The notes beneath the pieces were generated by a model. That model was not told the DNA's origin. It searched no databases and saw only the letters and a program-made list of their open reading frames with translations. A stretch of DNA of 64,000 nt from the NCBI RefSeq assembly GCF_030815405.1, contig NZ_JAUSWX010000001.1:3224001-3288000 (forward strand), given 5' to 3'. Both the position numbers and the translations under genes were made by a program. This document shows, piece after piece, positions 33,516-38,579 of the stretch. Source of the stretch: Agromyces albus. Lineage in GTDB: Bacteria > Actinomycetota > Actinomycetes > Actinomycetales > Microbacteriaceae. Every line of letters starts with the position of its first letter. Position 1 is the first letter of the stretch.

Positions 33516-33531
33516 GTCCGGGATCCCGGAC
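33516..33531. promoter_or_regulatory. HutR operator 1, hutR-hutH intergenic
   Basis: The perfect 16-bp palindrome GTCCGGGATCCCGGAC. It ends 55 bp before the hutH ATG and begins seven bases beyond the hutR -10, so it could both activate hutH and repress hutR. Confidence 0.75.
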
Positions 33532-33550
33532 GGATGCCGCGAGCACGGCA

Positions 33551-33579
33551 TTCCCGCGCGCGCGAGCGCGGTGTGGAAT
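33551..33579 (+). promoter_or_regulatory. Putative hutH promoter
   Basis: TTCCCG (33551-33556), a 17-bp spacer and TGGAAT (33574-33579), seven bases before the ATG at 33587. The elements are weak, as expected for an activator-dependent promoter. Confidence 0.4.
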
Positions 33580-33586
33580 CGGATGC

Positions 33587-35164
33587 ATGAGCACCACCGC
33601 ACCTGCATCAGCACCCCATCGCGCCGCCGCATCCGTCACCGTCGCCACCGGTCCGCTCGGCATCGACGAGGTCGTCGCCGTGGCCCGCCACGGGGCATCC
33701 GTCGTGCTCGACCCTGCAGCGCTCGACGGCGTGGCCGCGAGCCGGGCGATCATCGAGGGACTCGCTGAAGACCCCGAGCCGCACTACGGCATCTCGACGG
33801 GATTCGGCGCGCTCGCGACGACGTTCATCGCCGCCGACCGCCGCGCCCAGCTGCAGGCGAGCCTCATCCGCTCGCACGCCGCCGGCTCGGGCGCCGAAGT
33901 CGAGACCGAGGTCGTGCGGGCACTCATGCTGCTGCGCCTCTCAACCCTCATGACCGGGCGCACGGGCGTGCGACGCGAGACCGCCGAGACCTATGCGGCG
34001 ATCCTCAACGCGGACATCACCCCGGTCGTGCGCGAGTACGGCTCGCTCGGCTGCTCGGGCGATCTCGCCCCCCTCGCGCACTGCGCCCTCGTCGCGACGG
34101 GCGAGGGTGAGGTGCGGGTCGCCGACGGCCACCTCGTGTCCGCCGCAGAAGCCCTCGCCGCCGCCGGCATCACGCCGCTCCGCCTCGCCGAGAAGGAGGG
34201 GCTCGCCCTCATCAACGGCACCGACGGCATGCTCGGCATGCTCGCCCTCGCCATCGACGACCTGCGGATGCTCCTCACCACCGCCGACATCGCCGCCGCC
34301 ATGAGCGTCGAGGGACTCCTGGGCACCGATGCTGTCTTCGCCGCCGACCTGCACGCGCTCCGCCCGCAGGCCGGCCAGGCGGACTCCGCGTCGAACCTGC
34401 GACGGCTGCTCGCCGGCTCGCCGATCGTCGCGAGCCACAAGGGCCCCGAGTGCACTCGCGTGCAAGACGCGTATTCGCTGCGGTGCGCCCCGCAGGTGCA
34501 CGGCGCCGCGCGCGACACGGTCGCGCACGCGGCATCCGTCGCCCGTGCCGAGCTCGCGAGCGCGATCGACAACCCCGTGCTCACCCTCGACGGCCGCGTC
34601 GAGTCCAACGGCAACTTCCACGGCGCGCCGGTCGGCTACGTGCTCGACTTCCTCGCGATCGCGGTGGCGGATGTCGCGAGCATGAGCGAGCGACGCACCG
34701 ACCGGTTCCTCGACCGCGCCCGCAACCAGGGCCTGCCGCCGTTCCTCGCACACGAGGTCGGCGTGGACTCGGGACTCATGATCGCCCAATACACCGCGGC
34801 GGGCATCGTGTCGGAGCTGAAGCGGCTCGCGGTGCCGGCCTCCGTCGACTCGATCCCCTCGTCGGCGATGCAGGAGGACCACGTGTCGATGGGCTGGGCG
34901 GCCGGACGGAAGCTCCGCCGGTCGATCGACGGCCTCACTCGGGTGCTCGCGATCGAGGTGATGACCGCGGCGCGGGGACTCGCGCTGCGCGCTCCGCTGG
35001 AGCCCGGGGCCGCGACCGGAGAGATCGTGCGGCTCGTCGACCGCGTGGGTGCAAGGCCCGGACCCGACCGTTTCCTCTCGCCTGAGATCGAGGCGATCTC
35101 GGCACTCGTGGGCGACGGCGAGGTCGTCGCGACCGTGGCATCGGTCACCGGGCGACTCGACTGA
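33587..35164 (+). CDS. hutH: Histidine ammonia-lyase
   Basis: A 525-residue enzyme that removes ammonia from histidine to give urocanate. The MIO prosthetic group forms from the tripeptide in YGSLGCSGDLAPLAHCA (Cys156-Ser157-Gly158 rather than the more usual Ala-Ser-Gly). Other family motifs: GISTGFGALATT, INGTDGMLGM, QDAYSLRCAPQVHGAARDT, ESNGNFHGAPVGY and QEDHVSMGWAAGRK. The ATG at 33587 was chosen as the last start before the conserved region and fits a leaderless message; the in-frame stretch upstream is antisense to hutR. Confidence 0.95.
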   Translation: MSTTAPASAPHRAAASVTVATGPLGIDEVVAVARHGASVVLDPAALDGVAASRAIIEGLAEDPEPHYGISTGFGALATTFIAADRRAQLQASLIRSHAAGSGAEVETEVVRALMLLRLSTLMTGRTGVRRETAETYAAILNADITPVVREYGSLGCSGDLAPLAHCALVATGEGEVRVADGHLVSAAEALAAAGITPLRLAEKEGLALINGTDGMLGMLALAIDDLRMLLTTADIAAAMSVEGLLGTDAVFAADLHALRPQAGQADSASNLRRLLAGSPIVASHKGPECTRVQDAYSLRCAPQVHGAARDTVAHAASVARAELASAIDNPVLTLDGRVESNGNFHGAPVGYVLDFLAIAVADVASMSERRTDRFLDRARNQGLPPFLAHEVGVDSGLMIAQYTAAGIVSELKRLAVPASVDSIPSSAMQEDHVSMGWAAGRKLRRSIDGLTRVLAIEVMTAARGLALRAPLEPGAATGEIVRLVDRVGARPGPDRFLSPEIEAISALVGDGEVVATVASVTGRLD

Positions 35165-35232
35165 CATGTCCCCGGAACGGGGCGTTGTGGTGCCATTGTC
35201 TCGATGGCAGACTGGGGTGGTCGTCGCCCGAG

Positions 35233-36819: not shown

Positions 36820-36841
36820 GTCGACCGGACATCCTGGGTTG

Positions 36842-36857
36842 GTCTGGGATCCCAGAC
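36842..36857. promoter_or_regulatory. HutR operator 2, upstream of hutU
   Basis: The perfect 16-bp palindrome GTCTGGGATCCCAGAC, differing from operator 1 only in one symmetric pair. It ends 54 bp before the hutU ATG, matching the 55 bp at hutH. Confidence 0.75.
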
Positions 36858-36876
36858 GGGCTGGCCGCGGCATCCG

Positions 36877-36905
36877 TTGTCGCCGGATGCCGCGTGCGGT
36901 GAGAT
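36877..36905 (+). promoter_or_regulatory. Putative leaderless hutU promoter
   Basis: TTGTCG (36877-36882), a 17-bp spacer, TGAGAT (36900-36905), then six bases to the ATG. The operator ends 19 bp upstream of the -35, an activator position. Confidence 0.5.
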
Positions 36906-36911
36906 CGGAAC

Positions 36912-38579
36912 ATGACCGACGCACCCACCACCCGGCGCACCGTCCGCGCAGCACGCGGCACCGAGCTCACCGCGAAGAGCTGGCAGACCGAGGCGCCGCT
37001 GCGCATGCTCATGAACAACCTCGACCCCGAGGTGGCCGAGCGCCCCGACGACCTCATCGTCTACGGCGGCACCGGGAAGGCCGCCCGCAACTGGGAGTCG
37101 TTCGACGCGATCGTGCGCACGCTCGAGGGGCTCGAGTCCGATGAGACGCTGCTCGTGCAGTCGGGCAAGCCCGTCGGCGTCTTCCGCACGCACGAGTGGG
37201 CTCCGCGTGTGCTCATCGCCAACTCGAACATCGTCGGGGATTGGGCGACGTGGCCCGAGTTCCGCCGGCTCGAGCAGCTCGGCCTCACGATGTACGGGCA
37301 GATGACGGCCGGCTCGTGGATCTACATCGGCACGCAGGGCATCTTGCAGGGCACGTACGAGACGTTCGGCGCGATCGCGCGCGCCCGCTTCGAAGGGTCG
37401 CTCGCCGGCACGCTCACCCTCACCGGCGGGTGCGGCGGCATGGGCGGCGCGCAGCCGCTCGCGGTCACGATGAACGAGGGAGTCGTGCTCATCGTCGACG
37501 TCGACGAGACCCGGCTCGCGCGCCGGGTCGAGCACGGCTACCTCGACGAGCTCGCCGTCGACCTCGACGACGCGGTCGCGAGGGTGCTCGCGGCGAAGGA
37601 CGAGCGCCAGCCGCTCTCGGTCGGCGTCGTCGGCAACGCGGCGACCGTGTTCCCCGCGCTGCTCGCACGCGGTGTGCCGATCGACATCGTCACCGACCAG
37701 ACGAGCGCCCACGACCCGCTGTCGTATCTGCCTGAGGGGGTTACCGTCGCCGAGTGGCACGAGCTCGCGGCATCCGACCCCGAAGACTTCACGCGGCGAG
37801 CGCGCGCCAGCATGGCGAAGCACGTCGAGGCGATGGTCGGGTTCCAGGATGCCGGCGCCGAGGTGTTCGACTACGGCAACTCGATCCGCCGCGAGGCCGA
37901 GCTCGGCGGCTACGACCGCGCCTTCGCGTTCCCGGGGTTCGTGCCCGCGTACATCCGCCCGCTCTTCGCCGAGGGCAAGGGGCCGTTCCGCTGGGCGGCG
38001 CTCTCGGGCGACCCCGCCGACATCGCGGCGACCGACCGGGCGATCCTCGAGCTCTTCCCCGACGACGAGCACCTCCGCCGCTGGATCACGAAGGCCGGCG
38101 AGAAGGTGCACTTCGAGGGCCTGCCGGCCCGCATCTGCTGGCTCGGCTACAAGGAACGACACCTCGCGGGGCTGAGGTTCAACGAGATGGTCGCCTCGGG
38201 CGAGCTCAGCGCACCGGTCGTGATCGGCCGCGACCACCTCGACTCGGGCTCGGTCGCCTCGCCGTATCGCGAGACCGAGGCGATGGCCGACGGCTCCGAC
38301 GCGATCGCCGACTGGCCGCTCCTGAACGCCCTGCTCAACACGGCCTCGGGCGCGACGTGGGTCTCGATCCACCACGGCGGCGGCGTGGGCATCGGCCGCT
38401 CGATCCACGCCGGCCAGGTGATCGTCGCCGACGGCACCCCGCTCGCGGCCGAGAAGATCGAGCGCGTGCTCGTGAACGACCCCGGCACGGGCGTCATGCG
38501 GCACGTCGACGCCGGCTACGAGCGCGCGGTCGAGGTCGCCCACGAGCGCGGCCTGCGCATCCCGATGCAGGAAGGCTGA
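36912..38579 (+). CDS. hutU: Urocanate hydratase
   Basis: A 555-residue NAD-dependent enzyme converting urocanate to imidazolonepropionate. The tightly bound NAD+ site shows as GGCGGMGGAQPLAVTMNEG; YGQMTAGSWIYIGTQGILQG, FDYGNSIRREAELGGY and RICWLGYKERH (conserved Cys) are family hallmarks. Length equals the usual ~555. ATG without a clear SD but six bases after a -10 element, so probably leaderless. hutI begins three bases after the stop. Confidence 0.97.
   Translation: MTDAPTTRRTVRAARGTELTAKSWQTEAPLRMLMNNLDPEVAERPDDLIVYGGTGKAARNWESFDAIVRTLEGLESDETLLVQSGKPVGVFRTHEWAPRVLIANSNIVGDWATWPEFRRLEQLGLTMYGQMTAGSWIYIGTQGILQGTYETFGAIARARFEGSLAGTLTLTGGCGGMGGAQPLAVTMNEGVVLIVDVDETRLARRVEHGYLDELAVDLDDAVARVLAAKDERQPLSVGVVGNAATVFPALLARGVPIDIVTDQTSAHDPLSYLPEGVTVAEWHELAASDPEDFTRRARASMAKHVEAMVGFQDAGAEVFDYGNSIRREAELGGYDRAFAFPGFVPAYIRPLFAEGKGPFRWAALSGDPADIAATDRAILELFPDDEHLRRWITKAGEKVHFEGLPARICWLGYKERHLAGLRFNEMVASGELSAPVVIGRDHLDSGSVASPYRETEAMADGSDAIADWPLLNALLNTASGATWVSIHHGGGVGIGRSIHAGQVIVADGTPLAAEKIERVLVNDPGTGVMRHVDAGYERAVEVAHERGLRIPMQEG

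What the first reader, a model, noticed from the sequence alone, without database searches (positions are those of the whole stretch)
33516..36912. Twin perfect palindromes fix the hut promoters at the same geometry
GTCCGGGATCCCGGAC and GTCTGGGATCCCAGAC stand 55 and 54 bp before the hutH and hutU start codons. Both genes have -35/-10-like hexamers 17 bp apart and a -10 six or seven bases before ATG. The palindrome lies upstream of the -35, where IclR activators bind. At hutR itself the palindrome is seven bases beyond the -10. This predicts a HutR consensus GTCYGGGATCCCRGAC and leaderless hut messages.
Basis: partly seen in the sequence, partly recalled or inferred. Interest (0 to 1): 0.7.

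Follow-up and report, generated by a model that had tools for sequence, protein, structure and literature searches.

The report
HutR operators lock leaderless hut promoters
Two near-identical DNA palindromes sit at a fixed distance before histidine-breakdown genes; they match the known binding motif of the regulator HutR, and comparison with relatives indicates that transcription starts on the start codon itself, so the messages have no leader.

Summary
The palindromes end 55 and 54 bp before the hutH and hutU ATGs and are the only matches with 0 or 1 mismatch in the 4.27-Mb Agromyces-like genome. The motif is known: HutR of Corynebacterium resistens, GTCTGWWATWCCAGAC.

The geometry is the strong part. 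In the family, 65 of 70 hutH genes with a site have an in-frame ATG exactly 54 or 55 bp after it; in 51 promoters from other families, 43 have a start codon at 53-56 bp. Candidate hutR starts lie at scattered distances. Anchored on the palindrome, a -35, a 17-bp spacer and a -10 appear. Shine-Dalgarno 4-mers precede 4 of 125 such starts but 39 of 40 starts at 79-151 bp. In 24 hutU promoters of Arthrobacter and kin the promoter keeps its place, A stands at +55, and the ATG lies 89-143 bp away. This supports leaderless messages with HutR centred near -62.5, a class-I activator position. Binding, activation and 5' ends are untested.

The parts
33516..33531 (.). Palindrome 1, HutR operator between divergent hutR and hutH; centre at -63.5 if the A of the hutH ATG is +1
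   Evidence: GTCCGGGATCCCGGAC; with palindrome 2 the only match with 0 or 1 mismatch in the genome; conserved in relatives
33551..33556 (+). hutH -35-like hexamer TTCCCG
   Evidence: positions +20 to +25 after the palindrome; T at +20 in 50 of 72 promoters
33574..33579 (+). hutH -10 hexamer TGGAAT, 7 bases before ATG
   Evidence: positions +43 to +48; T43 65/72, A47 60/72, T48 68/72
33587..35164 (+). hutH, histidine ammonia-lyase; predicted +1 at the A of ATG (33587)
   Evidence: TIGR01225 624 bits, above cut-off
32714..33496 (-). hutR, IclR-family regulator
   Evidence: PF09339 and PF01614 above cut-off; similar protein beside hut genes in many relatives
33503..33508 (-). hutR -10-like hexamer TAGGCT, 6 bases before the hutR GTG
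   Evidence: sequence; similar hexamers beside the palindrome in Agromyces relatives, by eye
36842..36857 (.). Palindrome 2, HutR operator of hutU; centre at -62.5 if the A of the hutU ATG is +1
   Evidence: GTCTGGGATCCCAGAC
36877..36882 (+). hutU -35-like hexamer TTGTCG
   Evidence: positions +20 to +25 after palindrome 2
36900..36905 (+). hutU -10 hexamer TGAGAT, 6 bases before ATG
   Evidence: positions +43 to +48 after palindrome 2
36912..38579 (+). hutU, urocanate hydratase; predicted +1 at the A of ATG (36912)
   Evidence: TIGR01228 909 bits, above cut-off
38583..39830 (+). hutI, imidazolonepropionase, 3 bp after hutU
   Evidence: TIGR01224 373 bits, above cut-off
35254..36819 (+). M23 peptidase gene that separates hutH from hutU
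   Evidence: PF01551 2.4e-29; an M23 gene lies between hutH and hutU in six fetched relatives too

Best explanation
The palindromes are operators of the IclR-family regulator HutR encoded at 32714-33496. HutR bound at about -70 to -55 touches RNA polymerase from just upstream of a poor -35/-10 promoter and activates it, in the way of a class-I activator, when a histidine-pathway inducer is present. Transcription starts at the A of the hutH or hutU ATG, so both messages are leaderless. Palindrome 1 also covers the -35 position of divergent hutR and should repress it. hutU has its own copy because an M23 peptidase gene separates it from hutH. Shown by comparison: motif identity, motif-promoter-ATG geometry, lack of Shine-Dalgarno, about one site per hut transcription unit. 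Inferred: binding, inducer, activation, autorepression, exact 5' ends.
For: Published HutR motif GTCTGWWATWCCAGAC (PMC8222616 Table 1, passage). HutR and HutH occur in nearly the same genomes: 81 and 85 of 150, 80 shared. Of the five hutH-only genomes, four have a more distant HutR (42-46%) and a palindrome at 54, and the fifth has neither in its 10.5-kb stretch. In-frame ATG at 54/55 in 65 of 70 hutH with a site in the family set, 10 of 12 in the extra family set and 49 of 53 in the named set, which partly repeats the same genomes. Start codon at 53-56 in 43 of 51 promoters from 19 other families, the 43 from 15 families. Candidate hutR starts on the other side: scattered distances. Conserved -35 (+20) and -10 (+43 to +48) with 17-bp spacer. 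Natural control: 24 leadered hutU promoters of Arthrobacter and kin keep T20 24/24, T43 23/24, T48 23/24 and have A55 24/24. SD 4-mers: 4/125 fixed starts against 39/40 starts at 79-151 bp; 1/43 class-wide fixed starts. hutU has its own site in 2 of 63 cases directly after hutH and in 36 of 41 cases elsewhere (repeated genomes not removed).
Against: No binding, footprint or 5'-end data in this organism. The three W positions of the published motif are G or C here. Not all promoters fit: five of 70 family hutH (L055, L057, L060, L069, L070), L120 and L124 in the extra set, L171, L173 (53), L180, L195 in the named set, and eight of 51 class-wide, among them hutH of L223 and L264 at 164 and 126 bp. 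Three class-wide loci had no site at the threshold. Residue-motif covariation, promising in the family and named sets, did not hold across the class. Activation rather than repression rests on position and the weak -10 alone.
Confidence: 0.82

Rival explanations
1. HutR binds the palindromes but as a repressor of hutH and hutU that is released by the inducer; the messages are still leaderless.
For: IclR proteins include repressors, activators and dual regulators (PMC8222616). At hutR the palindrome covers the -35 position, where it would repress.
Against: At hutH and hutU it lies wholly upstream of the -35, at a distance locked to within a base or two in promoters of 16 families; a repressor would not need such a lock. 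The second -10 base is mostly G (37 of 65) or T (20 of 24 leadered ones) where A is usual.
Confidence: 0.13
2. The fixed distance reflects shared ancestry only, and the messages carry ordinary short leaders.
For: Many loci come from one family, and the named set partly repeats its genomes.
Against: Between palindrome and ATG little else is conserved: no position from +24 to +37 exceeds 0.2 bits. The distance holds in 15 other families; the hutR side drifts; Shine-Dalgarno 4-mers are almost absent.
Confidence: 0.05
3. A different regulator binds the palindromes.
For: Binding by this HutR has not been shown.
Against: Palindromes and HutR genes travel together; the one hutH without HutR in its stretch lacks the palindrome (L114); the motif matches that of C. 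resistens HutR.
Confidence: 0.04

Closest known systems
HutR of Corynebacterium resistens DSM 45100 (Schroder et al. 2012; listed in Table 1 of PMC8222616)
   Same: IclR-family gene beside hut genes; motif GTCTGWWATWCCAGAC agrees with palindrome 2 at all 13 fixed letters; site upstream of the promoters (this last point is recalled from the abstract; the paper is not held)
   Different: Central W positions are G/C here; hutU has a separate operator behind the M23 gene; the locked distance to the start codon and leaderless messages are the added points. Whether C. resistens hut messages are leaderless was not seen.
IclR-family site survey (Suvorova and Gelfand, PMC8222616)
   Same: Site centres mostly at -20 to -80 from the gene start (section 14); ours at -62.5 and -63.5
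   Different: It pools all IclR regulators; no single-base lock for HutR appears in what was read (passages, sections 14, 19 and 22; supplements not seen)
Leaderless genes of Actinobacteria (PMC3160421, PMC3898074, PMC3890552; passages)
   Same: -10-like signal about 12 bp before the start codon, no Shine-Dalgarno
   Different: The signals described in PMC3160421 and PMC3898074 are TANNNT; here the second base is mostly G, as expected of an activator-dependent promoter

Membership tests
IclR-family regulator | IclR helix-turn-helix and IclR C-terminal domain | tested here: met
   PF09339 48.5 bits and PF01614 78.4 bits, both above cut-off
HutR regulon (C. resistens type) | regulator gene lies beside hut genes | tested here: met
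   hutR divergent to hutH; hutU and hutI downstream
HutR regulon (C. resistens type) | motif GTCTGWWATWCCAGAC before hut transcription units | tested here: met
   13 of 13 fixed letters in palindrome 2, 11 of 13 in palindrome 1 (a symmetric T to C and A to G); the three W positions are not A/T in either. Relatives show both kinds
HutR regulon (C. resistens type) | purified HutR binds the motif | not testable with these tools
   needs a gel shift or footprint
HutR regulon (C. resistens type) | protein orthologous to C. resistens HutR | not tested
   its sequence was not fetched; class-wide matches are unnamed
Leaderless gene | -10 element about 12 bp before the start codon | tested here: met
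   first T of the -10 at -12 (hutU) and -13 (hutH); conserved in the family
Leaderless gene | no Shine-Dalgarno before the start codon | tested here: met
   4-mers in 4 of 125 fixed-distance starts against 39 of 40 starts at 79-151 bp
Leaderless gene | mapped 5' end on the start codon | not testable with these tools
   no RNA data

The most novel reading that the evidence does not exclude
Across the class the first hut gene has stayed leaderless since a common ancestor because the HutR operator, the -35/-10 and the start codon form one rigid module (operator centre near -62.5, +1 = A of ATG). Leaderlessness itself is under selection there, and hutU of Arthrobacter and kin left it by gaining a Shine-Dalgarno leader downstream of an unchanged promoter and +1 A.
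Probability: 0.5. Interest if true: 0.6.

Novelty: new member of a known kind. Interest (0 to 1): 0.48.

Why it matters
The motif is known. The single-base lock between an activator site and the start codon, with leadered relatives as a natural control, would let transcription starts and start codons of hut genes be read from sequence in many genomes. It also gives a defined, regulated leaderless promoter for testing how such messages are controlled and translated, and it could help to choose between alternative hutH start codons.

Tried and rejected
Residue-motif covariation: in the family and named sets together (148 different HutR proteins with a site; 6 with mixed motifs set aside) 13 of 14 proteins with the variant motif GTCTC..GAGAC have Arg/Lys at HutR residue 45, against 0 of 128 with GTCTG..CAGAC. 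The tree of 117 rows needs 2 motif changes and 1 residue change, in essence one switch. With the class-wide set added, 19 of 35 variant-motif proteins have His there, and residue 45 falls from first to third by mutual information.

Other genome sites: the two extra loose matches lie inside long ORFs, so no further HutR target is claimed. A hutG search gave five matches, none above the cut-off.

Literature: searches for HutR with IclR and for leaderless with hut genes, IclR or urocanate hydratase showed no report of leaderless hut messages in the listings seen; one search listed 15 of 84 papers and one search listed 10 of 12, and most were not opened. PMC8079986 (Streptomyces lividans starts) holds none of the four hut terms sought in its main text. 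Subscription papers, Schroder 2012 among them, are not held.

Full report
Observation. Profiles name the neighbours: IclR regulator 32714-33496 minus, hutH, an M23 peptidase, hutU, hutI. In the 4,268,800-base genome GTCYGGGATCCCRGAC occurs at these two places with no mismatch, nowhere with one, and at six further places with two. GTCYGNNATNNCRGAC occurs exactly at four places, against one for the reversed control; the two others lie inside long ORFs.

Known motif. Table 1 of PMC8222616 gives HutR of Corynebacterium resistens as GTCTGWWATWCCAGAC, citing Schroder et al. 2012 (passage). Palindrome 2 agrees at all 13 fixed letters, palindrome 1 at 11. The C. resistens genome paper says that all the corynebacterial hut clusters it compared contain hutR, an IclR-family gene (PMC3350403, passages). 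Schroder 2012 is not held; from recall of its abstract, the motif lies upstream of the mapped promoters. So the operator is of a known kind.

Relatives used. HutR was sought in 150 genomes of the family (81 with a match at E <= 1e-50) and hutH in 150 (85 at E <= 1e-100); by comparison of the two lists 80 genomes have both. Stretches: 75; 16 more around hutH, including the five genomes with hutH but no HutR match; 80 named loci, the best of 590 (the best matches are Agromyces), which partly repeat genomes of the unnamed set; and 60 of the 68 genomes of other families with a match.

Fixed distance. In the window plus 75 loci 73 hutH were found, 70 with a site; 65 of 70 have an in-frame ATG at exactly 54 (46) or 55 (19) bp, and no other distance occurs in more than 5 loci. 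The other five are L055, L057, L060, L069 and L070. In the 16 extra stretches 12 of 16 hutH have a site, 10 of them at 54; in two of the rest hutU comes first and has the site at 54 (L118, L119), and L114 has neither HutR nor site. In the named set 53 of 72 hutH have a site, 49 of them at 54/55; those without one are mostly loci where hutU comes first. With the site chosen without regard to distance and one promoter per locus, 61 of 69 family promoters have ATG at 53-56 while other 4-bp windows hold 0-6; in the class-wide set 38 of 51 have ATG, and 43 of 51 ATG or GTG, at 53-56, other windows 0-7 for ATG. The 43 come from 15 families besides the window's; 19 families have a site. Of the 60 class-wide stretches 5 hold no hutH or hutU start and 3 no site at the threshold; one of these three (L246) has a degenerate palindrome about 53 bp before an ATG, by eye.

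Internal control. On the other side the candidate starts of hutR lie at widely varying distances, from 2 to over 100 bp (ATG, GTG and TTG counted, and in a few loci hutR faces another palindrome than hutH does). In Agromyces relatives the hutR -10-like hexamer sits on either side of the palindrome while the hutH side stays fixed (by eye). In the window the palindrome lies over the hutR -35 position, if the spacer is 17 bp.

Promoter. Anchored on the palindrome end, 72 fixed-distance promoters (65 hutH, 7 hutU) show T at +20 (50/72), T43 (65/72), A47 (60/72) and T48 (68/72): a -35 and a -10 with a 17-bp spacer. Position +1 is A in 56 of 72; no position from +24 to +37 exceeds 0.2 bits. In all 53 promoters at 54 bp the -10 ends six bases before ATG; at 55 bp it ends seven bases before ATG in 14 of 19. 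Anchored on ATG, the second -10 base is mostly G (37 of 65, A in 7), unlike the TANNNT of mycobacterial promoters (PMC3898074, passages). This fits a promoter that needs an activator.

Natural experiment. In Arthrobacter, Sinomonas and kin the palindrome precedes hutU at 89-143 bp. In 24 such promoters T20 is present in 24, T43 and T48 in 23 each, and A stands at +55 in 24, which is where the A of ATG falls in the 54-bp promoters; the ATG follows a GAAGGAG-like Shine-Dalgarno. These 24 are close relatives of each other. Over the family, extra and named sets a Shine-Dalgarno 4-mer lies at -15 to -5 in 4 of 125 fixed starts and 39 of 40 starts at 79-151 bp; class-wide in 1 of 43 fixed starts. 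The promoter stays and the start codon moves, so in the fixed group the start codon is at +1. The duplex energies with the 16S end differ less sharply (medians -6.4 and -8.8 kcal/mol).

One site per unit. hutU directly after hutH has its own site in 2 of 63 cases; hutU placed elsewhere has one in 36 of 41 (repeated genomes not removed). The window's second palindrome is explained by the M23 gene between hutH and hutU, an arrangement also seen in L076, L078, L080, L085, L087 and L090; of these, L085 and L090 have the hutU site at 122-125 and 151 bp, the other four at 54.

Mechanism. With +1 at the A of ATG the palindrome centres are at -63.5 and -62.5. From general knowledge this is the class-I activator position. 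The survey of IclR sites puts most centres at -20 to -80 from gene starts, with DNA-turn periodicity (PMC8222616 section 14). Activation, inducer and hutR autorepression are inferred.

Against. Exceptions in distance exist as listed, including leadered hutH in L055, L070, L124, L171 and L180 and, outside the family, L213, L223, L239, L240, L250, L255 and L264. The residue-45 covariation failed outside the family and named sets. No wet data were available. Actinobacteria are known for leaderless genes (19.2% on average by prediction, PMC3160421; 33% of mapped C. glutamicum mRNAs, PMC3890552; passages), so leaderlessness as such is ordinary. Its persistence at one operon across families is the less expected part, since PMC3160421 reports that start signals change in step with phylogenetic distance.

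Noticed in passing
window, about 35530-35760: The M23 peptidase gene between hutH and hutU carries a run of near-identical 18-bp units that encode a Glu-Pro-Thr-Pro-Thr-Glu-like stretch.
   Followed up: no
L039, L045, L048, L049, L050, L062: Family loci with hutU on the opposite strand from hutH have hutU starts at 79-97 bp while their hutH stays at 54/55.
   Followed up: partly
L037, L042, L044, L093, L095, L099, L219, L242, L272 and others: A variant operator GTCTCNNATNNGAGAC stands in place of GTCTGNNATNNCAGAC in several lineages at the same distance from ATG.
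   Followed up: yes
L053, L089: hutR has an in-frame stop in two relatives (TGA, TAG) beside a palindrome and a hutH without stops.
   Followed up: no
genome C1:3290655-3291527 minus, 2.7 kb past the window: A gene with a below-cut-off match to formimidoylglutamase (hutG) may supply the last hut step.
   Followed up: no
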